Shown in pieces: positions 22,218-42,858 of a DNA stretch of 64,000 nucleotides. The DNA comes from Tsuneonella mangrovi (GTDB lineage Bacteria > Pseudomonadota > Alphaproteobacteria > Sphingomonadales > Sphingomonadaceae). The stretch lies in NCBI RefSeq assembly GCF_002269345.1, contig NZ_CP022889.1, positions 1,612,001 through 1,676,000 of the forward strand. The letters run 5' to 3'. The notes below the pieces were generated by a model, which ran no database searches, was not told the origin of the DNA, and saw only the letters and a list, made by a program, of their open reading frames with translations. Positions within the stretch are counted from its first letter, which is position 1. Each line of letters begins with the position of its first letter. The position numbers and the translations under genes were made by a program.

Positions 22218-22260
22218 TTTCCTGAGCGCTTTGGTGCGGACGATCGGGAGGTATGACATC

Positions 22261-24264: not shown

Positions 24265-24274
24265 CGGAGAGCGC

Positions 24275-25750: not shown

Positions 25751-25814
25751 GTGCTTTACGCTGCATTTCATCACGCCTAGCATCGCGATAGTTTCAGGGA
25801 TCAATACGAAAATC

Positions 25815-26528
25815 ATGGCTTTACGCGGTTTATTGGCGCTGCTCCTCCTTGTGCTGACCGGATGTGCGGGGAATCCGCCACTCGGCGGTGGCAAGGACGT
25901 GGCGGTCGCCGACACGAACGGGCTTCCCGCACCTACCGCCGCGGACATGGTGTCCTCTGCCCGCGACTACCTCATCGGCCCGTTCGACAAGCTGCATATC
26001 GATGTGTTCGGGATAGAGGACCTCCAGCGCGACGTGCAGATCGATGCGGCGGGGCAGCTCTCGTATCCGTTGATCGGCGTAGTCCAGGCGGCCGGCCAGA
26101 CACCGCAGCAGTTGGCCGCAACGATCGCCGACAAGCTGCGCGGCAAATATGTCCGCGACCCGCAAGTCACCGTCAACCTGACCGAAACCGTCAGCCAGGT
26201 GATCACCGTCGACGGCCAGGTCAACAAGCCGGGCCTTTACCCCGTCGTCGGCAAAATGACTCTCATGCGCGCGGTTGCCACGGCCGGCGGCGCAGACGAA
26301 TACGCCAAGCTCGACGACGTGGTCGTATTCCGCAAGGTCGATGGCCAGCAGATGGTCGGTTTGTACAACCTTGAAGGGATCCGCCGCGGCAACTATGCCG
26401 ATCCGGAAATTTATGCCAACGACGTGATTATCGTCAGCACCTCGCGCGCACGCCGCCTGTTCAAGGATATTCTCCAGGGCTCGTCGCTGATTACCACCCC
26501 GATAATCTTCGCGATCCGCACGCTCTGA
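25815..26528 (+). CDS. Polysaccharide export lipoprotein (Wza/Poly_export family)
   Basis: A 237-residue outer-membrane lipoprotein. The signal peptide LLALLLLVLTGC gives a lipobox cysteine at residue 17. The Poly_export domain begins at DYLIGPFDKLHIDVFGIEDL and one SLBB domain covers VITVDGQVNKPGLYPVVGKM. It is short compared with E. coli Wza (379 residues) and lacks an obvious C-terminal amphipathic barrel helix, as is common in alphaproteobacteria. It is 11 bases upstream of the wzc-like kinase gene. The chosen ATG at 25815 gives a proper lipoprotein signal. Confidence 0.9.
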   Translation: MALRGLLALLLLVLTGCAGNPPLGGGKDVAVADTNGLPAPTAADMVSSARDYLIGPFDKLHIDVFGIEDLQRDVQIDAAGQLSYPLIGVVQAAGQTPQQLAATIADKLRGKYVRDPQVTVNLTETVSQVITVDGQVNKPGLYPVVGKMTLMRAVATAGGADEYAKLDDVVVFRKVDGQQMVGLYNLEGIRRGNYADPEIYANDVIIVSTSRARRLFKDILQGSSLITTPIIFAIRTL

Positions 26529-26539
26529 GTCCCCGATCG

Positions 26540-28750: not shown

Positions 28751-29997
28751 TGGACCGCGGGTCTGACGGCAATTCGCCCAGCCTCGGACGGACCTGGATT
28801 CGTGCCGGGGTCATCGTGCTCGGTGCGGCCGCGCTGGGCTGGTTCGCCAGTGTGCAGGCATTCGCGACGGCGATGGCCCAGTTCAATCCCGAACTGGCCT
28901 TTGCCGCCGCTCCCGGGAACGGCGAGGCCGCCGCTCATGAAGCGGAATTCCTGCTGACTCGGGCAACACTGGCCAATAATGGCCAGCCAACCCACGATGA
29001 AGCACGCGACGCGCTGGCAATCGCGCGTGCCAGCTTTGCGCGATCTCCGCTCGAAGTCATCGCCGTGCGCAGCGCCGGTATGGCGCGCGATGCGTTGGGC
29101 GACACCAAGATCGCTCGCGCGCTCATGCGCGAGGCCATCGGCCTGTCGGCGCGCGACACTGGTGCCAACCTGTGGCTCGTCAATGACTACGCCAAGCTCG
29201 ACGACCTAAGCGGCGTGCTGCACCACTACGACCTGGCGCTGCGGACGAGTTCGAAGGCCGAAGACGTTCTCCTGCCAAAACTCGCGCAAACGCTGCAGTT
29301 GCCGCAGTTCATTGGGCCAATCGAAAAGCAGTTGGCGCAGAACCCGCCTTGGGCGACCCATTTCTGGTACACGGTGATCAATACACCCGACTCGCTCAAG
29401 AACGCTGCCACGCTGCGGATGGACCTCTACAAGGCCGGTGTTGCCATGCCGCAGGACCGGCTCGACCGGATGTTGGTCAACGGACTAGCCCGTAACAACG
29501 AATGGAACGAAGCGTTTACGCTCTATCGCCAGTTTGCTGGCAAGTCGGCACCACCGCTTGACCGCGTTGGGTCGGTCGATCTGTCCCGGGATCCGCAATT
29601 CCCGCCGGTCGAATGGGCATTCCCGACCAACGGCCTGCAATCGGGTGGGATCGATCCGGGAACCAGGCAAATGATCCTCACCGGCGGTTCGGGTTCGGTC
29701 GGGATTGGTGCCTATCGCGCGCTCAGGTTGAAACCGGGCAGATACGCATTCGACATGGCATTCGTGCCCGACCCGACCGGCGGCCAACGCCCCAACGTCG
29801 AAGCGCGCGTGGTCTGCGCGACGAGCGATTCCTCGAGCCCGGTCGCCGATTTCAAGGATACCGGGCAACCGACCGTTTCGGGTTCGTTCACAATCACCGG
29901 GGCATGCAGCGACTACCTGCTGCAACTGCGACTCAGCGTGCAGTCCGGTGGCGCAACCGATGTTGCCATCAACAAGCTGAGCCTGCAGCCAAGCTAG
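28750..29997 (+). CDS. Anchored periplasmic protein of the polysaccharide operon, unknown function
   Basis: A 415-residue protein I cannot name. An N-terminal membrane segment (AGVIVLGAAALGWFASVQAF, residues 17-36) anchors a periplasmic part. Residues 65-260 are helical, with TPR-like pairs (ALAIARASFARSPLEVIAV, KIARALMREAIGLSARDTGA, VLHHYDLALRTSSKAEDVL). Residues 285-415 look like a beta-sandwich (VGIGAYRALRLKPGRYAFDM, DYLLQLRLSVQSGG), with a pair of cysteines in VVCATS and GACSDY. The gene starts at the wzc stop (TGATG), so it is translationally coupled and likely helps assembly or export of the polymer. Confidence 0.75.
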   Translation: MDRGSDGNSPSLGRTWIRAGVIVLGAAALGWFASVQAFATAMAQFNPELAFAAAPGNGEAAAHEAEFLLTRATLANNGQPTHDEARDALAIARASFARSPLEVIAVRSAGMARDALGDTKIARALMREAIGLSARDTGANLWLVNDYAKLDDLSGVLHHYDLALRTSSKAEDVLLPKLAQTLQLPQFIGPIEKQLAQNPPWATHFWYTVINTPDSLKNAATLRMDLYKAGVAMPQDRLDRMLVNGLARNNEWNEAFTLYRQFAGKSAPPLDRVGSVDLSRDPQFPPVEWAFPTNGLQSGGIDPGTRQMILTGGSGSVGIGAYRALRLKPGRYAFDMAFVPDPTGGQRPNVEARVVCATSDSSSPVADFKDTGQPTVSGSFTITGACSDYLLQLRLSVQSGGATDVAINKLSLQPS

Positions 29998-30073
29998 GCG
30001 CTCCATCGATCGCGGTGGACCGGACGAATCGATCGCCCGGACCATCCTCGACACCATGTGAGAGGTTACGGAA

Positions 30074-31348
30074 ATGCTCTCGCGCAGGATATTCCTTGGA
30101 AGTGCATTGGCCTCCGGCGGTGCGGCCTATGCGATGATCACTGGCAATGTTGGCGCCGGTGCGTCGCAGGGCCTCGCTCCAGCCGACGACAGCGGACCTG
30201 CACTCAACGCCAAGCTCGCAGCACTGGCCGCTTCCGGCGGCGGGACCTTGCAACTTGGCGATGGGGTATACGGCACCCGCGTGCCGATCATCCTGCCCGG
30301 CGGCGTTACCATTGCGGGCACCGGAAAGACGATTGTCCGGGCGATCGCGCCGATTGGCAACGACGCGCTCAAACGCAGTCTTGTCGAAACACCCGACGGG
30401 CAGACCGGTTGCGGCATCCGCGACCTCACGCTCGACTGCGCGGGAAACGTTGCGATGGCGGCGTGGAACGCAACCGCGCCCGATACGCTGACTTGCGACG
30501 GAGTGACCATTATCGGATGGAAATACGGGCTCTACTTCGTCAGCTCCGATACCCGTCCGGCACAGAATATCTCTATCACCAACACTACTGTGCGCGATGG
30601 TGCCGGCGTGCAAATCTATCCCATCTTCGTTTCCTCCACCATAGGTGGACAGGCAGTCCGCAATGTTTCGATGGACGGGGTTACTGTCTTGGGGACGGGT
30701 GGGAGTTATTCCGCCGAGAACGCTGCCACAGCCGACCAGATCGCATTCCAGAACGTGCAGGGCTTTTCTCTGGCCAACATCGTTTCGCGCAACGGAGGGG
30801 AGAACGGCATCTCGATCGTGCGCGGATCGCGCGACGGGACCATGCGCAACGTGACCGTGACCGGCTCGGACGGGCATGGCCTGCAAATCGGCGGAGGGGG
30901 CGTGGTTGCCACAGTCGATAACCCGGCGGCCTTCCAGGCCGATACCCCGAGTCTGGGCATGACCAGCCACGGAGAAGCAAAGGTGCTGCGGGTTGTCGGC
31001 AACCAGGTCTGGCTAGGCGGGATCAAGCGACACCAGCTCCAGGTTGGCGAACGCTTGCTGGGCGCCTTTGGCGGAGCGAAAATTACCGCGCTCGAGTTCT
31101 GCCGCAATATTTCGCTCGATGGCTACGTCGCTGACGGCAACGGGCTCAACCGAGCTGGTATCCGGGGCGCATTTGCCGACCTCTACATCTCGCAGGCGGA
31201 AGACATCTCGCTGGCGGGTCTCGACTTGCGTTCACCAGCACCGACCTACCCGCTGCTGGTCAACAACAGCCGCGATGTCCCGTGCACGGTATCGACCGCG
31301 CAAGGCAGGATCGAAGCGCGTCGGACCGGTACGGTAACCTGTGCTTGA
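30074..31348 (+). CDS. Tat-exported right-handed parallel beta-helix protein
   Basis: A 424-residue protein. The N-terminus MLSRRIFLGSALASGGAAYA is a twin-arginine-type signal. The body shows pectate-lyase-like repeats with many Asn/Gly/Val turns (ISITNTTVRDGAGVQIYPIF, VRNVSMDGVTVLGTGGSYSA, IVRGSRDGTMRNVTVTGSDG). It is consistent with a polysaccharide lyase, hydrolase or epimerase that trims or modifies the secreted polymer. Catalytic residues cannot be assigned without alignment. It is 76 bases after the anchored protein in the same direction and convergent with the Wzy-like gene (15 bases between stops). Confidence 0.78.
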   Translation: MLSRRIFLGSALASGGAAYAMITGNVGAGASQGLAPADDSGPALNAKLAALAASGGGTLQLGDGVYGTRVPIILPGGVTIAGTGKTIVRAIAPIGNDALKRSLVETPDGQTGCGIRDLTLDCAGNVAMAAWNATAPDTLTCDGVTIIGWKYGLYFVSSDTRPAQNISITNTTVRDGAGVQIYPIFVSSTIGGQAVRNVSMDGVTVLGTGGSYSAENAATADQIAFQNVQGFSLANIVSRNGGENGISIVRGSRDGTMRNVTVTGSDGHGLQIGGGGVVATVDNPAAFQADTPSLGMTSHGEAKVLRVVGNQVWLGGIKRHQLQVGERLLGAFGGAKITALEFCRNISLDGYVADGNGLNRAGIRGAFADLYISQAEDISLAGLDLRSPAPTYPLLVNNSRDVPCTVSTAQGRIEARRTGTVTCA

Positions 31349-31363
31349 CGTGCACGAGAGCGA

Positions 31364-32656
31364 TCAGCCCGGAACCGCACCGGATGGCTGGGGTCGCGGA
31401 CCGGGCGCGCGCTTACCGCGGGGCTCTCGGCGCATTTTGCGATAGACCGGACGGGCAAACACAACCCCGGGCAACAAGAGCAGCAGCAGGACCGACTCCA
31501 GCACAACCTGATACACATACGAGCCCAGCGACGTATTGAGCAGGATCGGCACCTTGGCGACGGCAAAGAACACCAGCAACGATAACCTGCGATATTCAAG
31601 CATCTTCTTCTCGGCAAGAAACACACCGACGAACATCGCAAAGCAGAACACCGCCCCCACCAGCGGACCGAACGAAAGTACCGCTTCGGACACCGCCCCC
31701 AAGGTTACGCCCGAGGTATCGACCCCGAACACTTCGGAGCTAACCATGCGACCGATGTCCTTGAAGTATATGGTGTGGTTCGGGTCGAAGGGCTCGACCA
31801 GGAAATTCAGGCTGAGGAAGTCGATCTGCCCTGCCACTCTCTGCCATTCGTAGACCGCTCCGACCTTGCTGATATTCATGAAGTACCGGGTGCTCATAAC
31901 CTTATCGAGCCCGAACAGGATCGAATCGTAGAGCCCCATTCCCTGCTGGTTGCTCGCCCGGAAGATACCGATCGCAACCAGCGCGGCGGCAAACGGCGCA
32001 GCGTACATCACGAGCTTGCGGACGTTCAGGCGGCGGTAGAGCCAGGTCACGTAGATCAGCTCGAAACCGAGGACGAACAGCATCGCACGCTGCGAGAAGA
32101 TCACCGAAATGACCAGCGTGACTAAGGCGAACCCGCCCACCATCACCAGGTACTTGCGGTGATGGGTCGAAAGGTAAGCCATGTAGCTCAAAGACACGAG
32201 CACGTGGCTGAACAGCGACGCCTTCAGTAAGATATACAGCAGGATACCCGAATCCGACGAGTCGAGATCGCGCTTGGCTGAAAGGTTCTGGGCGATTTCG
32301 CTGAAACCCAGGACATAGGCTCCAAGAACCGCTGCGACGACCGTCCCGGCCGCCACGAAGTAAAACGGCCAGGTCAACCGTACGACCCGATCGCGAAACT
32401 GCCGAGCGACCGGACGAAGCGGCACCAGCGCATGAGCCAGGAATGCCAGGATCAGGGCGATCGCGACCATCAGAGTGCCGTCGACCATGACCCGCACAGG
32501 ATCGTATATCCCGAAATACTGGAAGCGCATTGCCGCCGGGGTGTAGGGGTCGCGATAAATCAGGACCAGGTACGGCAGGCGGATCGCAAGCTCGAATATC
32601 GACAGCGCAAAGATCAGCCACATGACCGGCGTGAACTGGTTGCTACGTTTCGGCAT
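31364..32656 (-). CDS. Wzy-like polysaccharide polymerase candidate (multi-pass membrane protein)
   Basis: A 430-residue membrane protein with about 10-12 predicted transmembrane helices. There is a long periplasmic loop in the second half (DFLSLNFLVEPFDPNHTIYF) and a basic Pro/Arg-rich cytoplasmic C-tail. Sequence family not recognised with certainty; O-antigen polymerases are highly divergent. The place at the end of an operon with a flippase, nucleotide-sugar genes and transferases makes Wzy the best guess. Its start overlaps the flippase gene by 14 bases. Confidence 0.68.
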   Translation of the reverse strand: MPKRSNQFTPVMWLIFALSIFELAIRLPYLVLIYRDPYTPAAMRFQYFGIYDPVRVMVDGTLMVAIALILAFLAHALVPLRPVARQFRDRVVRLTWPFYFVAAGTVVAAVLGAYVLGFSEIAQNLSAKRDLDSSDSGILLYILLKASLFSHVLVSLSYMAYLSTHHRKYLVMVGGFALVTLVISVIFSQRAMLFVLGFELIYVTWLYRRLNVRKLVMYAAPFAAALVAIGIFRASNQQGMGLYDSILFGLDKVMSTRYFMNISKVGAVYEWQRVAGQIDFLSLNFLVEPFDPNHTIYFKDIGRMVSSEVFGVDTSGVTLGAVSEAVLSFGPLVGAVFCFAMFVGVFLAEKKMLEYRRLSLLVFFAVAKVPILLNTSLGSYVYQVVLESVLLLLLLPGVVFARPVYRKMRREPRGKRAPGPRPQPSGAVPG

Positions 32657-33866
32657 GTCGCTCCCAGACCGCGATGATCGCGAAGGCTGCCAAGCAGTAG
32701 ACGAGGCAACTTGCGAAATACAGCGTGTAGATCGCCTCGAGCGACTGCCATCCGGCTACGCTCCGGACAACCAGGTAGATCGCCGCTACCGACGCTGCCT
32801 TCCACAGTGCGGCGGCGAGGTAATGGCGCCATGATCGCAATGCGAAGACGATCAGCGTCCCCAGCCGGTCAGCAACGATCGCAAGCACGAACAGCGCGAC
32901 GGCCGCCGCCGATACCGACAAGAACGGAAACGCCAGCATGACCGCGCTGCTCCACAGGGCAGCCAGCACCCCGACGTATCCCAGCGTGCCGAGCGAGAAC
33001 TGACCGGCGATCGCCGCGACTACCGGCGATTTGCCGTGCGCACCGGTCGAGTTGGCAAATAGCTCGCGAGTGCGCGTGCGATAGAGCGTCGCGAACAATA
33101 GCGAAAGCGGGCTGAGCAGAAGCAAGGTCAGTGCGCCGGAGCTGGCCAGTTCGAGGGAACGATGCACGCCGCTCAGGGCGTATTTGTCGACCTGGAACAT
33201 CACTGCGCTGATCGCGAAAAATGCCAGCGAAGCGGTCCGGTCGATCCAACGGGACCGGTTCGCTTCATCGTCTGCGTGGCGACCTGCATCGTCAAGGTCA
33301 CTGCGAAAGACGATCCGGTGCACCGCCAGCATTGCCAGCAGGTAAGCATAGGAACCCGCCGAAAAGGCCACCACCGGTCCCTCGCCGAGCAGGACCCAGG
33401 TCACCGCAATACGCACAACCGCCATCGCAAGCACCACGCCCGCCCAGTTCGAGGCATTGCCGGTGCGATGCTGGATCGACCCGGCGGCGGCGGTGGCATG
33501 GATCTGGCTGAACACTGTACTTGCTAGGATGACCGATTCAAACACGCTGAAATGGCGATCAGTCGCAAGTGCGATGATCGCGATCGAGGCGGCGAACTGC
33601 AAGCCTTCCTCGATCCAGGCGGAGGTTCGCGAGCGACGCTCGTCCTGGTAGATCGACAACAGGATCCGCTGCGCCATCACGGTCGATAGCGGCGAATAGA
33701 GCGCAAGGAACAGGAAGAACCCGGCGCGCGGCTCGACTCCTAAACCGCGCGCAATCAGCGAGACCGATACGAACGAGGCGACGAAACTTGCCGCCGTGTA
33801 AGAAGCAGACGCCAGCGTCCGCCGGGCGAGCGCCGTCAGGCGCGCAAGAGTTGGACGCGCCGTCAA
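32643..33866 (-). CDS. Wzx-like polysaccharide flippase candidate (MOP superfamily)
   Basis: A 407-residue protein with about 10-12 hydrophobic helices and short loops. Its N-terminus (ASYTAASFVASFVSVSLIAR followed by GLGVEPRAGFFLFLALYS) resembles the first helix pair of oligosaccharide flippases. A conserved-looking FFAISAVMFQVDKYALSG segment starts the second half. It is slightly short for Wzx. It overlaps the sulfotransferase gene upstream by four bases and the Wzy-like gene downstream by 14. It would move the undecaprenyl-linked repeat unit to the periplasmic face. Confidence 0.68.
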   Translation of the reverse strand: MTARPTLARLTALARRTLASASYTAASFVASFVSVSLIARGLGVEPRAGFFLFLALYSPLSTVMAQRILLSIYQDERRSRTSAWIEEGLQFAASIAIIALATDRHFSVFESVILASTVFSQIHATAAAGSIQHRTGNASNWAGVVLAMAVVRIAVTWVLLGEGPVVAFSAGSYAYLLAMLAVHRIVFRSDLDDAGRHADDEANRSRWIDRTASLAFFAISAVMFQVDKYALSGVHRSLELASSGALTLLLLSPLSLLFATLYRTRTRELFANSTGAHGKSPVVAAIAGQFSLGTLGYVGVLAALWSSAVMLAFPFLSVSAAAVALFVLAIVADRLGTLIVFALRSWRHYLAAALWKAASVAAIYLVVRSVAGWQSLEAIYTLYFASCLVYCLAAFAIIAVWERHAET

Positions 33867-34618
33867 AGGTATCCGAACTTGCGCATTGTAGTACCTTCGG
33901 CCGCCTCGATCAGCGCGATCGAGGCCGGATCGAGAGTATCCGCAAATCCGCCGACTTTCCCGCGCCGTATGAAGTTGCTTCCGCCCGCATCGCCTTCCGT
34001 TTCGCGGCGCGCGAGGATCGTCTCGATCGAATGTGTCTCGGCGACTTCCGCCAACCGGTCCGCAGCAGCCACGACCCCAACCCGTTCGAGCAATTGGGCC
34101 AACGTATCAGCCGGGTTCGAGCGGAAATCCTCATAACGGAAGATCGGCACGCCGCGCGCGCTGAAATGCTCGTAGAACGCATGCCACGAGAAGCGCGGGT
34201 AGATCGGCTGCGAGAGCTGGCGCGCTACGAAAGCCGCCAGCCGCTCGTGTTCGCTCGCGGCAGAATCGAAAACTTCCGAATGCGTCACCTCGACGATCTC
34301 GGAATTGAAGGGATCGTCTTCGAATACGGCATTCGAATGATGGAACAGCGATACGAACACGTCGCGCGGGTCGCGTACGATCACTGCGAGCGGGGAAACG
34401 CCGAGCGGCAGGCGGTGGTACTTGACGATGGCAGGGCCGGGCCGCGGGATTGCGTTGTCGTCGAACCGGTACCCGGTCACGTCGCGCAGCATCCGGCACA
34501 CCCAGGTGCCGCCCGACTTGGGATACTCGTTGATGCTCAGCGTGCTGAACAGCAACGGATTGAGCTTTTGGTGCGCATAGCGCGCAGCGTGAAGCGGAAC
34601 TCTCGACAGAAACACCAT
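33863..34618 (-). CDS. Sulfotransferase (Sulfotransfer_1 type)
   Basis: A 251-residue cytosolic PAPS-dependent sulfotransferase. The 5'-phosphosulfate loop is EYPKSGGTW at residues 31-39. The 3'-phosphate site is in VIVRDPRDVFVSLFHH (R82 and S90). The C-terminal PAPS motif reads FIRRGKVGGFAD near residue 218. All three family signatures are intact, so it should be active. The acceptor is unknown; the position inside a polysaccharide operon makes a sugar hydroxyl or amine of the repeat unit likely. It overlaps the flippase gene by four bases (ATGA). Confidence 0.9.
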   Translation of the reverse strand: MVFLSRVPLHAARYAHQKLNPLLFSTLSINEYPKSGGTWVCRMLRDVTGYRFDDNAIPRPGPAIVKYHRLPLGVSPLAVIVRDPRDVFVSLFHHSNAVFEDDPFNSEIVEVTHSEVFDSAASEHERLAAFVARQLSQPIYPRFSWHAFYEHFSARGVPIFRYEDFRSNPADTLAQLLERVGVVAAADRLAEVAETHSIETILARRETEGDAGGSNFIRRGKVGGFADTLDPASIALIEAAEGTTMRKFGYL

Positions 34619-34653
34619 CTACCCGGGCACCAATCCCAATCCAGTCGCCAAGT

Positions 34654-35796
34654 CTAGCTGCGAGCGTGGCCGCGGTCGAACATTGCAGCGATCCGCTCGA
34701 TAACTTCGCCTTGTTCAACTTCGCTCATGCTGGTGTCTGACGGCAGGCACAGCCCGGTCGCGAACAGCCGCTCGTCGAAACCGCTGCCAAAATAGCGAGT
34801 GCCGGCAAACAGCGGCTGGGTGTGCATCGGCTTCCACATCGGCCGCGATTCGATCTCGTGTTCGAGCAAGCCGGCGCGAATATCCTCACGGGTGATCCCG
34901 GCCTGCGCCGGGTCGACCGTCATCACCGATAGCCAGCGGGTCGAATGCGACCAGTTGGGTTCGGGCATGAAGGTGACCCCCGGATAGCTGCCAAGCGCAT
35001 CCCGGTAGCGCTGGAAGATCGCCCGGCGTTGCTCCACCCGCTGGTCGAGCACGTCGAGCTGGCCGATCCCGATCGCCGCGGTCACGTTACCCATCCGGTA
35101 GTTGAAACCGTAGACCGAGTGTTCGTAATGCGGTGCCGGATCGCGCGCCTGGGTGGAGAGGAACCGTGCGCGCTCGATCCACTTGGAATCGCGCGAAACC
35201 AGCATCCCTCCTCCGCCGGTGGTGATGATCTTGTTCCCATTGAACGAGAGGATCGCCATGTCGCCGCCGGTTCCCGCCATCCGCTCACCGCACCGCGCCC
35301 CGGCGGACTCGGCGCTATCGACGATCAGCCGGACTCCGTATTGCGCCGCCAGCGGCTCGATCGCCGCTATGTCGCAGCTCTGCCCATAGAGGTCGGTCGG
35401 CACGATCGCCTTGGGCAGACGCCCCCCTTTTGCGGCATCGGCCAGCGCTTCGCCGAGCAGGTCGGGGTCGACCGTCCAACTGGTCGGCGAGAGGTCGAAG
35501 AATACCGGTGTCGCCTGCTCGTATAGGATCGGGAACACGCCCCCGGCAAAGGTCATCGAACTGACCCACACTTCGTCGCCCGGCCGCAGGTCCTGCATGT
35601 GGAGCGCCAGGTGCAGCGCTGCCGATCCGCTCGATAGGCCGGCGCAATGCACTCCGCCGCCGAGGTATTCCTCGAACTTGCGCTCGAACGCATCGAGCTG
35701 CGGCCCGAGCGGCGCGATGAAATTCGAAGCAAACGCCTCGGCCACATGGTCCTGCTCGGTGCCGCCCATGTGCGGTCGCGATAGCCAGATCCTCAC
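34654..35796 (-). CDS. DegT/DnrJ/EryC1/StrS aminotransferase (EpsN/PglE-like)
   Basis: A 380-residue PLP-dependent sugar aminotransferase. It starts MRIWLSRPHMGGTEQDHVAE then FIAPLGP, the typical opening of UDP-4-keto-6-deoxy-GlcNAc C4 aminotransferases. GLSSGSAALHLALH binds the PLP phosphate, DSAESAGARCG carries the ring-stacking region, and the Schiff-base lysine is K189 in LSFNGNKIITTGGGG. With the dehydratase at 22.3-24.3 kb it could produce a UDP-4-amino-4,6-dideoxy-HexNAc. No acetyltransferase partner is seen. It overlaps the second sulfotransferase gene by four bases. Confidence 0.92.
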   Translation of the reverse strand: MRIWLSRPHMGGTEQDHVAEAFASNFIAPLGPQLDAFERKFEEYLGGGVHCAGLSSGSAALHLALHMQDLRPGDEVWVSSMTFAGGVFPILYEQATPVFFDLSPTSWTVDPDLLGEALADAAKGGRLPKAIVPTDLYGQSCDIAAIEPLAAQYGVRLIVDSAESAGARCGERMAGTGGDMAILSFNGNKIITTGGGGMLVSRDSKWIERARFLSTQARDPAPHYEHSVYGFNYRMGNVTAAIGIGQLDVLDQRVEQRRAIFQRYRDALGSYPGVTFMPEPNWSHSTRWLSVMTVDPAQAGITREDIRAGLLEHEIESRPMWKPMHTQPLFAGTRYFGSGFDERLFATGLCLPSDTSMSEVEQGEVIERIAAMFDRGHARS

Positions 35797-36692
35797 GCGT
35801 TCGCTCCCGTATATCCGTGCCGTTCCAGAGTTTTTGCCATGTCCGGCAGCGCCTCGGCGATGGCCGCCTGCGCCTGCGGCGAACGGCTCCTGCCAACGCT
35901 GCCCGTGCGGATGCCAGAGGTTACCGCGGCAATTTCGCTGTCATCGGCGCTTACGCCGAGAAACGCCAGTATCTCTTTGAGTTTGCTGCGCGGATTTGCA
36001 ACGAAATCCTCGTACCTCACCCGCAGCCAGCGATCGGCTGGCAGGGTCTGCAGGAACGCGTCGCTGCGATCGACACAGGCCGACCACTGGCGCGCGCAGA
36101 TCCGCGCGAGCGGTAAGCCTTGATCGCTGGCGATCCCACGATAGCGCGGGCCCCACAAGCTCAGCCTGTCGCTCTTGCCGACAAGCTTCTTCGTCCGCGT
36201 CAGCGCGAACGCAGCCATGTAGAGCGGCAGGTCGAGCAGCGGGGTATTGCGCGCCTTGGCAAAGAAATAGTCGCCCGCATCGAGTTCGAGCTCTCCGCGC
36301 CAGCGCTTCATGGCGGACGGCACGACGTCGCGACCGTCCCGGACGATTTCGAGATAGCGCGCACCACCCGCTTCCCCGCCCAGCGCGGCATCGACGAACG
36401 GCAACCGCAAGCTGTTGGCACAGGTCTTCTCGACCACGAAACGGGTACCCGGATTGGCCCGCGCGACCTTGTCGAACGCGCGACGGATAGTCCGTTCGCC
36501 TGCAGGCGTTAGATCGGAAGGGGCGAGTTCGTCGTCGCGGCGAAAGAAATGCCCGTGTCGCCAGACCGGGTTGATCTCGTCACAGTCCCACGTCGCAAAT
36601 CCGGGCAGCGCGGTGAGGCAGTCGCGCAGCATATTGGTGCCCGAGCGGCCAGCGCCGACAATCACCAGCGGAGTGTAGCGCGACGCGCTCAT
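35793..36692 (-). CDS. Sulfotransferase (Sulfotransfer_3 type)
   Basis: A 299-residue sulfotransferase of a different subtype from the one at 33.9-34.6 kb. The P-loop-like phosphosulfate site VGAGRSGTNMLRDCL is at residues 12-26. The 3'-phosphate region is YLEIVRDGRDVVPSAMKRW, and WLRVRYEDFVANPRSKLKEI is the usual distal segment. The ATG at 36692 overlaps the glycosyltransferase stop (ATGA); the longer reading to 36728 is rejected. Most likely acceptor: the polysaccharide repeat unit or its lipid-linked form. Confidence 0.88.
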   Translation of the reverse strand: MSASRYTPLVIVGAGRSGTNMLRDCLTALPGFATWDCDEINPVWRHGHFFRRDDELAPSDLTPAGERTIRRAFDKVARANPGTRFVVEKTCANSLRLPFVDAALGGEAGGARYLEIVRDGRDVVPSAMKRWRGELELDAGDYFFAKARNTPLLDLPLYMAAFALTRTKKLVGKSDRLSLWGPRYRGIASDQGLPLARICARQWSACVDRSDAFLQTLPADRWLRVRYEDFVANPRSKLKEILAFLGVSADDSEIAAVTSGIRTGSVGRSRSPQAQAAIAEALPDMAKTLERHGYTGANA

Positions 36693-37908
36693 CGGGCCTC
36701 CTCTAGCCGCGCGAGGAGCGCAGCCCACTGGTCGAGCCGGGCCTGCGTGGACATCACCGTGTCGTAGTATTTCCTGGCCTGTTCGCGCATCGCGGGCAGC
36801 CTATCGCGCGCTGCCACCGCCTCGGCAAGCCGCGCGGCGATCGCTTTGCTGTCGCGTTCGCCGACAACGAACCCGATATCTTCCCGCACGATCATCCGCG
36901 CCAGCTCGCTCTCGGGTTCGATGATCGCAAGCAGCGGCACGCCAAGCCCAAGGTAGGTCAGAGTCTTCGATGGGTAGGCAACCCGGTAGATGTCGGGTTC
37001 GACAGAGATCAGCCCGAGGTCGTAGCGCGCGATTGCTTGCTGCGCTTCAGCGAACGGGCGGTGGTCGAGGAACCGGACCCGTTCCATCCCATGCGCTTGT
37101 GCCCGGAGCGAAGGCTTGGCCTTGCCGTCGCCCATCAGCTCGAACTCGATTCCTGCATCCGAACCCACCAACTCCATCGCTCCGACGACTTTGTCGAGCG
37201 CCTGGAACTGGCCGATATTACCCGCGAACCCGATACGGATCGGTGCCCCGGCGGCACGCTCGACGGGGGCAGGCGCTGTCTCGCCGCTGCCGTCAAAATC
37301 CTCAAGCATGAAGTTATTGACGATCTCGACCTTTGCACCGGGGGCCAGCCCCCGCGCGGTCTGCGCCATGTCGTCCGACAAAGTGACCAGCGCCGCCGCC
37401 CGGTTGCGGGTGTTTCGTTCGATCGGGGCGAGAAGGCGGCTGGCGAGCCCGCGCTCGGGCCACATCCCCATGAAGTTCGCAAGTTCGGGATAGAGGTCCT
37501 GGCAATGATAGAGCAGCCTTGCGCCGAACAACTGCGCCACGACGCGCCCGGCCCAGCCTTGCATCACCGGCGGGATCGTCGCGGTCCAGACGAGGTCGTA
37601 ACGCTCGCCACCGAGACGCCGCAGCAGCGCTTTTCCGATCAGGCGGGGGACGAACGCCAACTTCCCGGCGAGCCGCACGAGGTCCGACCGGCGCGAGAAC
37701 GGCAGCCGCCCCATCCGTTCGACCCGGATCCCGTCGAGCGTCTCGCGCGCCGGGGCATCGAGCGCAAAATCGCCGAGCTTGTAGCACGGCTTCTCGCACC
37801 ACACCGTCACTTCGTGGCCCTCTGCAACAAGCCTCCGCCCGATCGAGCGCAGCATCGCCGCATAGGGCGGGCTGTCGGGCCAGAAATGACGGTAGAGGAT
37901 GAGGATTT

Positions 37909-37912
<4 letters not shown>
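36689..37912 (-). CDS. GT4 glycosyltransferase (WbuB/WcaI-like)
   Basis: A 407-residue GT-B transferase. The N-terminus ILILYRHFWPDSPPYAAML and VTVWCEKPCYKLGDF resembles WbuB-type transferases that add L-FucNAc. The C-terminal donor domain has RIGFAGNIGQFQALDKVVGA and GLGVPLLAIIEPESELARMI. It is the only conventional sugar transferase I find in this operon. It overlaps the phosphoglycosyltransferase gene by four bases, so both would act in the first two steps of repeat-unit assembly on undecaprenyl phosphate. Confidence 0.88.
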
Positions 37913-38502
<590 letters not shown>

Positions 38503-38515
38503 GGCCCTCGGTCGC

Positions 38516-39670
38516 TCAGATGTAATCGTGCATGCGAATCCCGTCCCACCCGTTCGACAGGCGGGCGGTGCCGACGATCAACTTCACGACCCGTTCGGAG
38601 GTGTTGAGGATGGCATAGTCTTCGGGCAGCGGGCAGCGCTCGCCCTTTGCCTGGCGTTCGGCGTGGATCGAAGTTACCAGGTCGACCGCTTCGCCGATGG
38701 TCCCGCTGTCGAGCCCGGTGACGACGATATTGCCGGTATCCATTGCTTCGGGACGCTCGATCGCGTCGCGCGGAGTGATCGCGGGAAAGTCGAGCATGCT
38801 CGATTCCTCGGCGATCGTGCCGCTGTCGCTGATCGCGCAGAACGCGTTCATCTGCAGGTTGTTGTAGTCGTGGAACCCGAACGGTTTCATGTCGCGAATG
38901 CGCGGATCGAGCTTGAGTCCATCCATCGCGTCGAGCCGCTTGCGGGTGCGCGGGTGGGTAGAGACGATCACCGGCATGTCGTGCCGCTCGGCCAGCGTGT
39001 TGAGCGCATTCGCGAGCTGCGCCAACCGTTCCTTGCTGTCGACGTTCTCCTCGCGGTGGAGCGAGACGATGAAATACTTGCCCTTTTCCAACCCGAGCCG
39101 GGCAAGCACGTCGGACCCTTCGATTTGCGCGCGGTAATGCTCGAGCACTTCGCGCATCGGCGATCCGGTGAGGTAGACGCGGCGGTGCTGCATTCCTTCG
39201 GACAATAGGTGCCGCCGGGCGTGCTCCGTATAGACGAGATTGAAGTCCGAGATGTGGTCGACCAGCCGCCGGTTGGTCTCTTCGGGCACGTTGCGGTCGA
39301 AGCTGCGGTTGCCTGCTTCCATGTGATAGACCGGGATCTTCATCCGCCGGGCCATGATCGCCGCGATCGCCGAGTTGGTGTCGCCCAGCACCAGCACTGC
39401 GTCGGGACGGTTGGCTTTCAGCTCCTTCTCGACCTCGACCAGGATCCCGCCGAGCACGGAGCCAAGGCTGGAGGTATCGACGCCGAGGAAATTGTCCGGC
39501 TGGCGCACCCCGAGATCGCTGAAGAACACCTCGTTGAGTTCGTAATCCCAGTTCTGCCCGGTGTGGACGATCCGGTGATCGACGTGCTCGTCGAGCCGCG
39601 CCATGACTCGCGACAGGCGGATGATCTCGGGCCGTGTGCCGAGAACGGTGGTGACCTTGAGCCTCGTCAT
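38516..39670 (-). CDS. UDP-N-acetylglucosamine 2-epimerase family, probable UDP-L-FucNAc synthase (CapG/FnlC/WbjD)
   Basis: A 384-residue non-hydrolysing 2-epimerase, distinct from the wecB at 18.4 kb. Motifs are LGTRPEIIRLSRVMARLDEH, HTGQNWDYELNEVFFSDLGV, MEAGNRSFDRNVPEETNRR, VSLHREENVDS and AISDSGTIAEESSMLDFPAI. The HTGQNWDYELNEVFF segment is typical of the FnlC/CapG branch, which converts the CapF product to UDP-L-FucNAc. capE and capF lie upstream on the same strand, which supports this. The ATG at 39670 overlaps the methyltransferase stop; a longer reading to 39964 lies inside that gene. Confidence 0.9.
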   Translation of the reverse strand: MTRLKVTTVLGTRPEIIRLSRVMARLDEHVDHRIVHTGQNWDYELNEVFFSDLGVRQPDNFLGVDTSSLGSVLGGILVEVEKELKANRPDAVLVLGDTNSAIAAIMARRMKIPVYHMEAGNRSFDRNVPEETNRRLVDHISDFNLVYTEHARRHLLSEGMQHRRVYLTGSPMREVLEHYRAQIEGSDVLARLGLEKGKYFIVSLHREENVDSKERLAQLANALNTLAERHDMPVIVSTHPRTRKRLDAMDGLKLDPRIRDMKPFGFHDYNNLQMNAFCAISDSGTIAEESSMLDFPAITPRDAIERPEAMDTGNIVVTGLDSGTIGEAVDLVTSIHAERQAKGERCPLPEDYAILNTSERVVKLIVGTARLSNGWDGIRMHDYI

Positions 39671-40674
39671 TGTGGTGCCCCGGGATTGCCTGCAGCGGGC
39701 TTGCGGGCAGTAACCTGGATCCAGGCGCGATCGTCGCTCAATCGATCGACCCAGTCGGTCAGCCGCCACACCAGCCCCTTGATCCCCGATTGATAGCCGC
39801 TGGCGTTGGAAAATTCGAGCAGTCGCGGCGGCTTCGAATAGTCCTCGAGAATCTCGAACCCGACTTTGTCCATCATCCCGCGAAAAAACGCGCGATTGAA
39901 CCCGAATCGCATATTCACGAAATTGCGCTGGATGAAGGAATTGCGTGAGAGCTTGCCCGGCCAAAGCCGTGCCATCAGCCCCGCAGCCTTGCGTAGCGAA
40001 CTGTCGATGTTCTTGTAGTCGACCACGATGATCCCGCCCGGTTTGAGGACGCGCCGGCTCTCGGATAATGTGAAATATGGATCACGGTGGAGCATGAAAT
40101 TGCCGAGGATCACGACGACGTCGAACGATTCCGCAGGAAGATCGACCGTGTCGAGCGTCCCGCGCACCGCGGCGATACCGTGCTTCCTTGTCAACCCTGC
40201 CACCATCGGGCTCGGATCGATCCCGATCAGGTTGTCCTTGCCGAACGCAGCGGCGAATTCGACCGTCGTGAACCCGTTGCCGCAGCCGACATCGAGCAAC
40301 CGCGGTGGTGTCGGATCGTCCCGGTGCCGGGCAATCGCATCGGTAACATGGCGCGCCACCCCTTGACGTACCGATGCGTTGTCCTCCCAGTCGAAGTCGG
40401 GGTAGATATCGTCGGTGTCGGCATCGGCGATTTGCCAGGTCTCGACGAACAAGTGCATGTAGGCTTCACGATCGCCGATGTCGTCGATCCGCTTCTTGTC
40501 GAGCACTTCGTCGGCGATTTCGTTGACGTTGCTGTCGAATGTGATGCCGCATTTCAGGCACCGGCAATGACCGTAATCATGGCCGTTGAACCGGTCGAGC
40601 ACCACACTGCTTGGCGCCCCACCGCTGCAAAGGTGGCATGCGGACGGGGTCGTGCACGTCTTCGGGCCGGACAT
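39667..40674 (-). CDS. Class I SAM-dependent methyltransferase with N-terminal zinc-ribbon-like motif
   Basis: A 335-residue protein. Cysteines at about 13, 16, 39 and 42 (CHLC and CLKC) form a probable zinc knuckle, as in some sugar methyltransferases. SAM motif I is LLDVGCGNGFTTVEFA near 126-141, motif II/III is FDVVVILGNFMLHRDPYF, and LKPGGIIVVDYKNID follows. It sits between capF and capG with only one base to capF and a four-base overlap to capG. It is therefore co-translated with the FucNAc pathway and probably methylates a sugar of the repeat unit or its lipid-linked form. Target not determinable. Confidence 0.82.
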   Translation of the reverse strand: MSGPKTCTTPSACHLCSGGAPSSVVLDRFNGHDYGHCRCLKCGITFDSNVNEIADEVLDKKRIDDIGDREAYMHLFVETWQIADADTDDIYPDFDWEDNASVRQGVARHVTDAIARHRDDPTPPRLLDVGCGNGFTTVEFAAAFGKDNLIGIDPSPMVAGLTRKHGIAAVRGTLDTVDLPAESFDVVVILGNFMLHRDPYFTLSESRRVLKPGGIIVVDYKNIDSSLRKAAGLMARLWPGKLSRNSFIQRNFVNMRFGFNRAFFRGMMDKVGFEILEDYSKPPRLLEFSNASGYQSGIKGLVWRLTDWVDRLSDDRAWIQVTARKPAAGNPGAPQ

Positions 40675-40675
40675 G

Positions 40676-41824
40676 TCAGGTCTTTCCTTCAGCGGCTTCG
40701 GCGATCGGACCTACCGGATCGGCGTATGTGTCAGGATTGGCCGGGTCGAACAGCCGGTGCGCCCAGAAGAACGTGATCACCTCGCCCTCGCCACGGTTCT
40801 CGATATTGTGGGTATGCAGCGGCGGCATGTCGATCGCCGCTGGAGCGCCACCTGATACTTCGAACTCGTGGACCTCGTCGGTCAGCACCTTGCGGATGCG
40901 GATGGTAGCATCGCCGTGGACCACCAGGAACCGCTCCACCAAGTCGAAGTGGAAATGATCGCCGCGCTTCTGCCCGGGCAGGGTGGTCGAGAGAAAACTC
41001 TGCGCACAATTGCCGCCCTTCGCGCTCTCGAACAGCACGCCGCGCGGATCGGCATTGACCTTGAGCATGCGCGGGTAGTGCTGCGGATAACCGCCGGTGC
41101 GATAGGAATTGAACAGCGCGAGGTCGAACGGATCATCGAGATCGGGAAACACGTTGGCGGTATAGAGCGCGTGGAAACCGGAGAGCTTGTCGTAGAGTTC
41201 GGTAATCGCGGTATCGCGGCCTTCGGGCGCGAGCGTTCCGGCAGTGCCGTCGAGCACGGCATCGATCGCTATCTGCGCGGCGGCTCCAGCGTGGAGCAGC
41301 TGGACGCGTCCATCTGGGTTGATCGTCGGTTCTTCCCCCTGCCAGATCTGGTCGATCAGGGTGGCGGTGACGTTGTTGTAGTAGGGCCGCGCACACTCGC
41401 CGAAAATGTGCGGCAGCACCAGGTCGGTATAACGATCGGTGAACCCCGCCAGCACTTCGCCCGCAATCCGTTTCGACCGGCCATAGAACGTGTCGCGCGC
41501 GGCGTGGGTCGAATTGGCGTAGACGACATGCGGCCTCACGCCTGCTGTTTCGCACCCGGCCACCAACGCGCGGGAGATCGCGGGATTGCCCGCTTCGACC
41601 TCGTCTTCCGGGCCGCGGTTGACGCCGGCAAAGTGCAGCACTGCTTCGACCCCGTCGAGCGCTGCGGCGAGTCTGGCGGGATCGGCAAATGTCGCCCGGT
41701 CGATCGTCACCAGCTCGTGCGGCGGATCTTCCTTGCGGAAGCATGCAGCGCATGCGGTCGCGTGCAGCCGCGCCGACGCGTGCCAGCCGAGCAGGCCTTT
41801 CGCGCCGGTAACGGCAATCTTCAC
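40676..41824 (-). CDS. Bifunctional epimerase/reductase CapF (FnlB/WbjC)
   Basis: A 382-residue enzyme with an N-terminal SDR domain (VTGAKGLLGWHASARLHATA, THAARDTFYGRSKRIAGEVL) and a C-terminal cupin (about residues 250-365: GDHFHFDLVERFLVVHGDA, PPLHTHNIENRGEGEVITFF). This fusion is diagnostic of CapF. The cupin makes the C3 epimerisation and the SDR domain reduces C4 on the route to UDP-L-FucNAc. The start is a GTG at 41824 overlapping the capE stop (GTGA). Confidence 0.94.
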   Translation of the reverse strand: MKIAVTGAKGLLGWHASARLHATACAACFRKEDPPHELVTIDRATFADPARLAAALDGVEAVLHFAGVNRGPEDEVEAGNPAISRALVAGCETAGVRPHVVYANSTHAARDTFYGRSKRIAGEVLAGFTDRYTDLVLPHIFGECARPYYNNVTATLIDQIWQGEEPTINPDGRVQLLHAGAAAQIAIDAVLDGTAGTLAPEGRDTAITELYDKLSGFHALYTANVFPDLDDPFDLALFNSYRTGGYPQHYPRMLKVNADPRGVLFESAKGGNCAQSFLSTTLPGQKRGDHFHFDLVERFLVVHGDATIRIRKVLTDEVHEFEVSGGAPAAIDMPPLHTHNIENRGEGEVITFFWAHRLFDPANPDTYADPVGPIAEAAEGKT

Positions 41825-42858
41825 GCCCGCGCTTCCTTCCACGCGGCGAGTTCGGCCTCGACTTCGGGCAGGCTCAACAGCAGCGCCTTCACCCCGGCGA
41901 CATCGAGCCGCTCGGCATTGTGCGAATGGAAATCTTCTTTCGCGGCGGTCGCTTGCTCGCCTTCGGAGAAATAGGCGTTGTAGTTGAGGTCGCGCTCGTC
42001 GAGCCGCAGCCGATAGTAGTCGCCGAGATCCTCGGCCGTCGTCAGCTCCTGCGCGCTGGCGAGCGTTTCGTAGAGCTTCTCGGCGTGCCGCCAGCCGATC
42101 ACCTGCACTTCGTGGTTCGGCACTTCGAACAGCTCGATCAGCGCGGTCACGAGATCGGCGATGGTCGAAGCCGGGGCCTTCTTCACGAACAGGTCGCCCT
42201 GCCGCGCGTGTTCGAACGCAAAACGAACCAGCGCCACGCTGTCGCGCAGCGGCATCAGGAACCGGGTCATGTTGGGTTCGGTCACGGTGATCGGCTTGCC
42301 GGCCTTGATCTGCTGGATGAACAGCGGAATCACACTGCCGCGCGAATACATGACGTTGCCATAGCGCACGCAACTGACGGTGGTCGCGGCATCGCGCCCG
42401 ATCTCGCGCGCCGCAGCCTGGGCGAGCTTTTCCATCATCGCTTTCGACATGCCCATCGCGTTGATCGGCATCACCGCCTTGTCGGTCGAAAGGCAGACGA
42501 CGCTGGCGACCTTGTTGTCGATCGCCGAGCGAATGACGTTTTCGGAGCCGACGATGTTGGTCCGCACCGCTTCCAACGGGAAGAATTCGCAGCTCGGCAC
42601 CTGCTTGAGCGCGGCGGCGTGGAACACCGCATCGACCCCGTGCATCGCACGGTTGACGCTGTCACGGTCGCGCACGTCGCCGATGTAATACCGCACCCGT
42701 GGATCGCCGAGCCGGTTGCGCAGCGCGTCCTGCTTTTCCTCGTCGCGGCTGAACACGCGGATCTCGCTCAAGCCCTGTTCGAGGAGGCCCGTCAGCATCG
42801 TCTTTCCGAACGAGCCGGTGCCGCCGGTAATGAGCACGGTTTGCAGGGATGAAGTCAT
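41821..42858 (-). CDS. UDP-N-acetylglucosamine 4,6-dehydratase/5-epimerase CapE (FnlA/WbjB)
   Basis: A 345-residue soluble SDR starting the UDP-L-FucNAc pathway. NAD loop TGGTGSFGKTML at residues 11-22, FSRDEEKQDALRNRLGDPRV (typical for the family), HAAALKQVPSCEFFPLEAVR, STDKAVMPINAMGMSKAMME and VRYGNVMYSRGSVIPLF are all present. It lacks the membrane domain of the 22.3-kb dehydratase. The ATG at 42858 is chosen; the open frame continues far upstream through fabI but is not coding. It is the first gene of the leftward 11-gene operon, 89 bases after fabI. Confidence 0.94.
   Translation of the reverse strand: MTSSLQTVLITGGTGSFGKTMLTGLLEQGLSEIRVFSRDEEKQDALRNRLGDPRVRYYIGDVRDRDSVNRAMHGVDAVFHAAALKQVPSCEFFPLEAVRTNIVGSENVIRSAIDNKVASVVCLSTDKAVMPINAMGMSKAMMEKLAQAAAREIGRDAATTVSCVRYGNVMYSRGSVIPLFIQQIKAGKPITVTEPNMTRFLMPLRDSVALVRFAFEHARQGDLFVKKAPASTIADLVTALIELFEVPNHEVQVIGWRHAEKLYETLASAQELTTAEDLGDYYRLRLDERDLNYNAYFSEGEQATAAKEDFHSHNAERLDVAGVKALLLSLPEVEAELAAWKEARA

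What the first reader, a model, noticed from the sequence alone, without database searches (positions are those of the whole stretch)
31364..42858. Eleven-gene, near-continuously overlapping operon for a probable sulfated, L-FucNAc-containing polysaccharide
Seen: capE, capF, methyltransferase, capG, small PGT, GT4, sulfotransferase, aminotransferase, sulfotransferase, flippase-like and polymerase-like genes follow one another on the minus strand; eight of ten junctions overlap or abut and the other gaps are 13 and 35 bases. Known: CapE/F/G make UDP-L-FucNAc; PGT, Wzx and Wzy form Wzy-dependent assembly. Inferred: the polymer carries FucNAc and sulfate. Sulfated bacterial exopolysaccharides with a defined locus are uncommon, so this assortment may be undescribed.
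Basis: partly seen in the sequence, partly recalled or inferred. Interest (0 to 1): 0.72.

Follow-up and report, generated by a model that had tools for sequence, protein, structure and literature searches.

The report
Probable sulfated polysaccharide operon, acetyltransferase replaced
This operon looks like half of a machine for a sulfated bacterial surface polysaccharide; in it, and in relatives from distant bacteria, a sulfotransferase gene sits where many related loci keep the enzyme that acetylates the first amino sugar, which hints at an unusual way of sulfating a bacterial sugar.

Summary
In detail: eleven minus-strand genes, 31364-42858; eight of ten junctions overlap or abut, the other gaps are 13 and 35 bases. 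CapE, CapF, PGT, GT4, DegT and both sulfotransferases have family or structure matches; Wzx and Wzy rest on hydropathy, position and one relative (L052).

The system is larger than reported: WbpM/PglF, Wza, Wzc and a second Wzy-like gene converge on it (22231-31348); in relatives these are contiguous with ST1-DegT.

Main result: ST1 (35793-36692) belongs to a module found in Alphaproteobacteria and Bacteroidota. Its DegT is PglE-like; in loci without ST1 the PglD acetyltransferase lies near that DegT in 32 of 48 sampled, against 1 of 28 ST1 loci. In one Flavobacteriaceae pair CapE/CapG/DegT/WbpM are 88-95% identical while GT4-ST1-PGT replaces GT4-PGT-PglD. ST1 therefore most likely acts on the priming 4-amino sugar. 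Whether it N-sulfates the 4-amine or O-sulfates a sugar whose amine stays free is undecided.

Sulfated Wzy-type exopolysaccharides are known (synechan); I found no report of the PglD-sulfotransferase exchange. No chemistry was tested.

The parts
41821..42858 (-). CapE/FnlA-type UDP-GlcNAc 4,6-dehydratase/5-epimerase (first step to UDP-L-FucNAc)
   Evidence: best solved relatives 4j2o (404 bits) and S. aureus Cap8E 3vvb (395 bits); Pfam
40676..41824 (-). CapF-type reductase, GTG start
   Evidence: S. aureus Cap5F 2zkl 148 bits over 1-367; PF14667
39667..40674 (-). Class I SAM methyltransferase; not seen at this place in the relatives examined
   Evidence: Methyltransf_11 4.5e-16; the only hit in the loci is L040, 28% over 0.40 of the length
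38516..39670 (-). CapG/FnlC/WecB-type UDP-HexNAc 2-epimerase
   Evidence: Epimerase_2 1.2e-89; above the wecB NCBIfam cut-off
37909..38502 (-). Small phosphoglycosyl transferase (priming enzyme, PglC size)
   Evidence: Bac_transf 3.3e-52; PglC structures 8e37/8g1n 77-78 bits
36689..37912 (-). GT4 glycosyltransferase, probable second-step transferase
   Evidence: WcaI family 100 bits, below its cut-off; Pfam GT4 families
35793..36692 (-). ST1, Sulfotransfer_3 protein with P-loop G13xxRSGT19 and 3'-phosphate motif around R118-S126
   Evidence: PF13469 1.7e-20; motif residues invariant or nearly so in 35 homologs; profile hits protein-tyrosine sulfotransferases at 2.7e-13; motif names recalled
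34654..35796 (-). PglE-like DegT aminotransferase, GTG start
   Evidence: 1o61/4ztc (C. jejuni PglE; 1o61 named PglE in PMC10117803) 286/280 bits; Spr1654 (AATGal enzyme, 6ewj) only 64 bits
33863..34618 (-). ST2, Sulfotransfer_1 protein, second sulfotransferase
   Evidence: PF00685 3.2e-12; 47% identical counterpart in L052
32643..33866 (-). Wzx-like membrane protein (TTG start); by context
   Evidence: 8 hydrophobic segments; 25-27% identical in L052 at the same position; no family or PDB hit
31364..32656 (-). Wzy-like membrane protein; by context
   Evidence: 9 hydrophobic segments; 27% identical in L052
22231..24264 (+). WbpM/PglF-type UDP-GlcNAc 4,6-dehydratase; probable source of the DegT substrate
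   Evidence: WlaL 5bju (C. jejuni PglF, name recalled) 287 bits; contiguous with ST1-DegT in L023
24233..25750 (+). Wzy_C polymerase/ligase-like protein
   Evidence: PF04932 1e-16; beside ST1-DegT in L023 and in the same run of genes in L097
25686..26528 (+). Wza-type outer-membrane export protein (true start probably later)
   Evidence: PF02563 2.2e-24
26540..28750 (+). Wzc-type chain-length/tyrosine kinase protein
   Evidence: GNVR, Wzz, AAA_31
28750..29997 (+). 415-aa protein without a family; after Wzc and next to or near ST1 in L023, L028, L097
   Evidence: 28-30% identity, conserved order
30074..31348 (+). Right-handed beta-helix-like protein at the convergent end; possible polysaccharide-acting enzyme
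   Evidence: Beta_helix 1e-4, below the cut-off

Best explanation
The operon together with the converging genes 22231-31348 makes a Wzy-dependent sulfated polysaccharide. WbpM (PglF-like) and DegT (PglE-like) turn UDP-GlcNAc into a UDP-2-acetamido-4-amino-2,4,6-trideoxyhexose, probably of gluco form. In many related loci PglD then acetylates the 4-amine; here there is no PglD and ST1 takes its place, so the first sugar of the repeat is sulfated (or kept as a 4-amine and sulfated) instead of being di-N-acetylbacillosamine. The PGT primes undecaprenyl phosphate with that sugar, GT4 adds L-FucNAc made by CapE/F/G, ST2 adds a second sulfate, and the Wzx-like, Wzy-like, Wza and Wzc proteins flip, polymerise and export. 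Shown: gene content, conservation, and the exchange of ST1 for PglD. Inferred: every enzyme activity, the order of steps and the sulfation site.
For: (1) DegT is closest to C. jejuni PglE (286/280 bits) and the + strand dehydratase to PglF (287 bits). (2) A DegT-family gene lies within 1.3 kb of ST1 in 38 of 45 ST1 loci; capE plus capF are both present in 29 of 45, several loci being truncated (my count). (3) With PglE-type DegT, a PglD match (E 1e-20 or better) has its midpoint within 2.6 kb of DegT's in 1 of 28 ST1 loci and 32 of 48 others. (4) On the DegT tree the ST1 label needs 10 changes, at least 7 forced by starred branches; in 7 independent starred pairs PglD went the other way in 5.0 on average, the same way in 0.1. 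(5) L034/L035 against L155: CapE 94-95%, CapF 82-83%, CapG 95%, DegT 88-90%, WbpM 91-93% identical, but GT4 24%, PGT 30-31%, and ST1 in the cassette where the other has PglD; L038/L154 and L044/L156 are similar (DegT 88 and 80%, PGT 35 and 32%, no ST1 counterpart) (PglD). (6) PGTs of 21 of 24 ST1-only loci fall in one clade of 27: the priming enzyme changes with ST1 while DegT does not. (7) A full-length PglD match is found in 2 of 19 ST1 genomes searched, G688 (L053) and G759, in the latter about 1 Mb away; the window's genome has only partial matches. (8) APS kinase in the genome. (9) In L023 WbpM-Wza-Wzc-415aa-Wzy-ST1-DegT are contiguous.
Against: L053 has ST1 and PglD both beside DegT. L043, L047, L049, L051 have ST1 without a DegT gene in the stretch held, L048 and L100 only 6-8 kb away. 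L020, L029, L050 have a formyltransferase that could already cover the 4-amine. Weaker hexapeptide matches (E 7e-19 to 5e-14) lie elsewhere in L016, L025, L039, L097 and L153 and fell under the limit used for counting. The ST1-type PGT clade also holds three PglD loci (L129, L136, L140) and two with neither (L159, L161), and its support is 86. 16 of the 48 comparison loci have no PglD, and they were chosen by DegT similarity, 27 of them from one family; the independent-pair test has few pairs (median p 0.06). Over whole genomes of that family PglD is present in 1 of 5 with ST1 against 125 of 220 with DegT and no ST1 (hand count from the listings), a weak contrast. No structure could be predicted.
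Confidence: 0.55

Rival explanations
1. The 4-amine stays free, as in AATGal-type zwitterionic capsules, and ST1 is an ordinary O-sulfotransferase that acts on the first or second residue after priming. PglD is missing because the amine must be free, not because ST1 replaces it.
For: WcfR/WcfS make and prime a free-amine sugar, and no acetyltransferase is named in that paper's text (PMC13063421, passages). L161 has a PGT of the ST1 clade, a PglE-type DegT, no PglD and no N-modifying enzyme among the three neighbours scanned. PGT and GT4 would have to change with a free amine too.
Against: DegT resembles PglE far more than the AATGal enzyme Spr1654. It does not say why ST1 itself goes with that PGT and DegT in two phyla.
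Confidence: 0.3
2. ST1 sulfates L-FucNAc (or the disaccharide), and its link to DegT and PGT only reflects co-inheritance in one polysaccharide cassette.
For: capE and capF are in 29 of 45 ST1 loci; in the Flavobacteriaceae ST1 loci GT4 stands directly before ST1; L043 has capEFG-GT4-ST1 without DegT.
Against: Loci that carry PglD instead keep CapE/F/G at 82-95% identity in the closest pair, so the FucNAc genes stay while ST1 comes and goes; nine ST1 loci have a nearby DegT gene but not both capE and capF in the stretch held (L024-L028, L039, L046, L053, L097), some of them truncated.
Confidence: 0.15

Closest known systems
Bacillosamine pathway PglF-PglE-PglD-PglC (Campylobacter) and the FucNAc capsule loci that carry its relatives
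   Same: 4,6-dehydratase, PglE-like aminotransferase and small PGT, in relatives with CapE/F/G and a GT4
   Different: PglD is absent here and a sulfotransferase gene stands in the cassette that holds PglD in the sister loci
Synechan (xss) locus of Synechocystis (PMC8205485)
   Same: Wzx/Wzy-type exopolysaccharide locus with two sulfotransferases of different subfamilies
   Different: Synechan holds Rha, Man, Gal and Glc; no FucNAc or 4-amino sugar pathway appears in the passages read
Sulfated capsule loci of Vibrio sp. KMM 8419 and Cobetia marina KMM 1449 (PMC11641403, PMC11766843)
   Same: Sulfotransferases inside a capsule locus
   Different: ABC-transporter export, sulfated rhamnose, PAPS genes inside the locus (passages)
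Pontiella sulfated exopolymer (PMC7356697)
   Same: Sulfotransferase in a cluster with a 4-amino-sugar transaminase (next to each other in the figure legend's order); exopolymer measured as 75-80% N-sulfated by nitrous acid
   Different: Other phylum, sugars unknown, link between gene and N-sulfate not tested; relation of that sulfotransferase to ST1 not tested here
WcfR/WcfS AATGal module of Bacteroides polysaccharide A (PMC13063421)
   Same: 4,6-dehydratase, aminotransferase and PGT without an acetyltransferase named
   Different: No sulfotransferase in the pathway as shown in the passages; the sugar keeps its 4-amine there

Membership tests
Wzx/Wzy-dependent polysaccharide system | Priming PGT | tested here: met
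   Bac_transf 3.3e-52
Wzx/Wzy-dependent polysaccharide system | Wzx flippase and Wzy polymerase | tested here: inconclusive
   32643-33866 and 31364-32656 have no accepted family hit; a Wzy_C protein is at 24233-25750
Wzx/Wzy-dependent polysaccharide system | Wza and Wzc export proteins | tested here: met
   25686-26528 and 26540-28750
UDP-L-FucNAc pathway CapE/CapF/CapG | All three enzymes | tested here: met
   CapG by family only
Di-N-acetylbacillosamine pathway (PglF, PglE, PglD) | PglF-like dehydratase and PglE-like aminotransferase | tested here: met
Di-N-acetylbacillosamine pathway (PglF, PglE, PglD) | PglD acetyltransferase | tested here: not met
   no match in the window and only partial matches in the genome
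PAPS-dependent sulfotransferase | 5'-phosphosulfate loop and 3'-phosphate motif | tested here: met
   motif names recalled
PAPS-dependent sulfotransferase | PAPS supply in the cell | tested here: met
   APS kinase 1.9e-71
N-sulfotransferase | Transfer of sulfate to an amine | not testable with these tools
   needs an enzyme assay
Zwitterionic (AATGal-type) polysaccharide | Free amino group in the polymer | not testable with these tools
   needs NMR

The most novel reading that the evidence does not exclude
ST1 founds a family of bacterial N-sulfotransferases that sulfates the 4-amine of the PglE product, giving a 4-sulfamido-2-acetamido-2,4,6-trideoxyhexose as the priming sugar of surface polysaccharides in Alphaproteobacteria and Bacteroidota, and perhaps of other 4-amino sugars in Gammaproteobacteria, where ST1 stands with more distant DegT enzymes. 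The three loci with a formyltransferase also carry a PIG-L deacetylase between PGT and ST1, which would free the 2-amine for sulfation, in the manner of heparan N-deacetylase/N-sulfotransferase.
Probability: 0.3. Interest if true: 0.82.

Novelty: new variant of a known kind. Interest (0 to 1): 0.6.

Why it matters
If ST1 acts on the priming amino sugar, sulfation of these polymers is set at the first committed step, can be predicted from one gene exchange in genomes, and may be N-linked as in heparin. That would give a bacterial enzyme for a kind of reaction whose animal counterpart (NDST) is called hard to express in bacteria (PMC13353177 and PMC11069525, starts of abstracts in the listing), and a marker for sulfated exopolysaccharides. 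Even if the amine stays free, the loci would predict sulfated zwitterionic polysaccharides.

Tried and rejected
Whole-operon DNA search of plasmids gave only short pieces, largely capE and PGT. ST1 against plasmids gave two 25% matches. Promoter and terminator scan: no more than shuffles. Base composition does not mark the operon as foreign (63.3% against 65-66% in the flanks). Three GNAT-annotated and one ATP-grasp kind of enzyme from non-ST1 loci (five query proteins) were sought in the 28 ST1 loci and not found at E 1e-4. A Pfam scan of 71 other genes within 4.5 kb of DegT in the ST1 loci other than the window (genes like those of the operon left out) listed a formyltransferase, in three, as the only N-acylating family, but 26 of its 51 families are not shown. 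The idea that ST1 simply goes with FucNAc was weakened by the exchange pairs. The PIG-L argument is weakened by L123, a PglD locus without ST1 seen, which also has a PIG-L gene. Rows dropped: L054-L063 of the 48 hits (short or weak matches); L015 (ST1 at 35%, only 3.7 kb held, no DegT seen in it); L101 (same place as L032) and L151 (same as L038); L042 left out of the trees (DegT 35%). Of 49 plasmid records with DegT I fetched regions of 7 and used 6 in the tree; of the Flavobacteriaceae DegT places (225 genomes) only the 30 best were read. Two further plasmid regions did not settle the free-amine question. Paper searches that could have shown an ST1/PglD exchange or a bacterial N-sulfotransferase for 4-amino sugars listed none that I recognised in the open library; I saw listings and, for the papers named, passages, so this is not proof of absence.
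Full report
Observation. Eleven genes lie head to tail on the minus strand between 31364 and 42858. The genome is a single 2.70 Mb contig, and the window is C1:1612001-1676000. Two relatives of the same group are Pacificimonas and Altererythrobacter by record title (searches matched by contig position), so this is one of the Sphingomonadales; the genus is not named.

Gene functions. CapE and CapF match the S. aureus enzymes; CapG is an Epimerase_2 protein. DegT matches C. jejuni PglE best (286 and 280 bits) and the pneumococcal AATGal aminotransferase Spr1654 much less (64 bits) (PDB codes of Spr1654 from PMC5936713, passages). The PGT matches Bac_transf and PglC. ST1 and ST2 belong to Sulfotransfer_3 and Sulfotransfer_1. 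In 35 ST1 homologs G13, R16, G18, T19, D38, E39, E88, K89, R118, D122, S126, Q202, W203, Y227 and E228 are among the invariant residues, and the profile aligns with both nucleotide-binding regions of protein-tyrosine sulfotransferases (E 2.7e-13). The window's genome has an APS kinase. Wzx and Wzy have no accepted family match and rest on hydropathy, place and one distant relative.

The system is larger. On the plus strand, converging on the operon, are a PglF-like dehydratase (287 bits), a Wzy_C protein, Wza, Wzc, a 415-aa protein and a beta-helix-like protein. In L023 (Pacificimonas) the order is WbpM-Wza-Wzc-415aa-Wzy-ST1-DegT; L097 has Wzy-Wza-Wzc-415aa-ST1-DegT and L028 Wzy-Wzc-415aa-ST1. 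So the dehydratase that would feed DegT belongs with ST1 and DegT.

Distribution. ST1 is rare: 8 of 298 genomes of the family including the window's own, and none of the six other genomes listed as same genus; 2 of 385 in a class-wide sample at a stricter limit, again with its own; 5 of 299 in the family of Cochleicola (L031), which I call Flavobacteriaceae, the query's genome included. A scan of one genome for each of 84,980 species gave 48 loci, of which 38 (L016-L053) were used. By record title they come from Rhodobacterales, Sphingomonadales, Gammaproteobacteria, Flavobacteriia, Saprospiria and others. Together with six further loci and the window, 38 of 45 have a DegT-family gene within 1.3 kb of ST1; 28 of them, counting L038 where the gene is 4 kb away, hold a PglE-type DegT, all in Alphaproteobacteria or Bacteroidota, while the gammaproteobacterial loci L026, L039, L040 have DegT enzymes only 32-35% identical. 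Gene order differs: PGT-ST1-DegT in ten loci (L016-L019, L021, L022, L025, L027, L030, L036), and capE-capF-capG-GT4-ST1-PGT-DegT-WbpM, with small differences, in L031, L034, L035, L037, L044 and L153; the window differs from both. Same content in different order points to a functional unit. L052 (Hellea) shares ten of the eleven genes, all but the methyltransferase.

ST1 against PglD. Loci with a PglE-type DegT but no ST1 often carry PglD beside it: 7 of 16 alphaproteobacterial genomes of the class sample; three Sulfitobacter plasmids with DegT 65-67% identical to the window's, in the order sugar transferase-acetyltransferase-aminotransferase; and 20 of the 27 best Flavobacteriaceae loci without ST1. 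Others have a GNAT protein near (L084, L113, L160) or an ATP-grasp protein (L157); several have nothing recognised, and seven of the alphaproteobacterial ones (L085, L086, L088, L090, L094-L096) are not next to a PGT. In the ten PGT-ST1-DegT loci ST1 occupies the place of PglD. In the 76-row set, PglD lies near DegT in 1 of 28 ST1 loci and 32 of 48 others.

Exchange on the tree. The DegT tree mixes ST1 and PglD rows, with at least seven changes of the ST1 label forced by well-supported branches; in seven independent pairs PglD goes the opposite way in 5.0 on average (median p 0.06). The PGT tree, by contrast, puts 21 of the 24 ST1-only rows in one clade of 27; the other three are the formyltransferase loci. 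Between Gilvibacter (L034, L035) and the related L155, CapE, CapF, CapG, DegT, WbpM and the Wzi-like gene are 79-95% identical (the gene before CapE only 48-53%), while GT4 and PGT are 24% and 30-31% identical and ST1 stands in one, PglD in the other; two further pairs are similar, with lower flanking identities and, in L038, an inverted half. The exchanged cassette thus holds the enzyme that primes with the first sugar and the transferase that follows. This fits a change in the first sugar and is hard to explain if ST1 acted on FucNAc alone.

N- or O-sulfation. With no full PglD match in the genome the 4-amine must be sulfated, otherwise modified, or left free. For N-sulfation: ST1 takes the place of an N-acyltransferase, and in the three loci where a formyltransferase would cover the 4-amine a PIG-L deacetylase that would free the 2-amine stands beside ST1; a PIG-L gene is however also seen in L123, a PglD locus. 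Pontiella exopolymers were measured as mostly N-sulfated, with a sulfotransferase gene in a cluster holding a 4-amino-sugar transaminase (PMC7356697, passages and one section); whether that protein is related to ST1 was not tested. Against: L161 has the ST1-type PGT, DegT and no N-modifier recognised, so this PGT may accept a free amine, L053 has both ST1 and PglD, and some ST1 loci lack DegT. I put the first-sugar reading at 0.55 and N-sulfation at 0.3.

Place among known systems. Sulfated polysaccharide loci are known (PMC8205485, PMC11641403, PMC11766843; passages). A glycan gene cluster of giant viruses also has bacillosamine genes and a sulfotransferase, there with PglD kept (PMC10117803, passages). 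The recurrent replacement of PglD by a sulfotransferase was not found in print in the searches listed under Tried and rejected.

Noticed in passing
L020:5932-7619, L029:8278-9965, L050:8239-9913: A formyltransferase and a PIG-L deacetylase stand between PGT and ST1 in these three loci, and their PGTs form a separate clade.
   Followed up: partly
window 24233-25750 and 31364-32656: Two polymerase-like genes in one polysaccharide locus, one with a Wzy_C domain and one without an accepted family.
   Followed up: no
window 28750-29997: 415-aa protein with no Pfam family, kept after Wzc in L023, L028 and L097 at 28-30% identity.
   Followed up: partly
window 30074-31348: Beta-helix-like protein with a twin-arginine-like start at the convergent end, possibly acting on the polymer (signal read by eye).
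   Followed up: no
window 39667-40674: Methyltransferase with an N-terminal cysteine cluster (read by eye), in the operon here but not at this place in the ST1 relatives examined.
   Followed up: partly
G000:C1:988179-1001692: The APS kinase gene and the genome's best Sulfotransfer_1 match lie about 12 kb apart, far from the window.
   Followed up: no
L161:7994-12310: PglE-type DegT and an ST1-type PGT beside Wzy, a phosphoesterase and LicD, without ST1 or PglD: a possible free-amine, choline-phosphate polymer.
   Followed up: partly
L053:10001-13288: Chryseobacterium-labelled MAG with ST1, PGT, PglD and DegT together, the one exception to the exclusion beside DegT.
   Followed up: no
L123:2616-3896: A PIG-L deacetylase gene next to PglD in a Flavobacteriaceae DegT locus without ST1 in the stretch held.
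   Followed up: no
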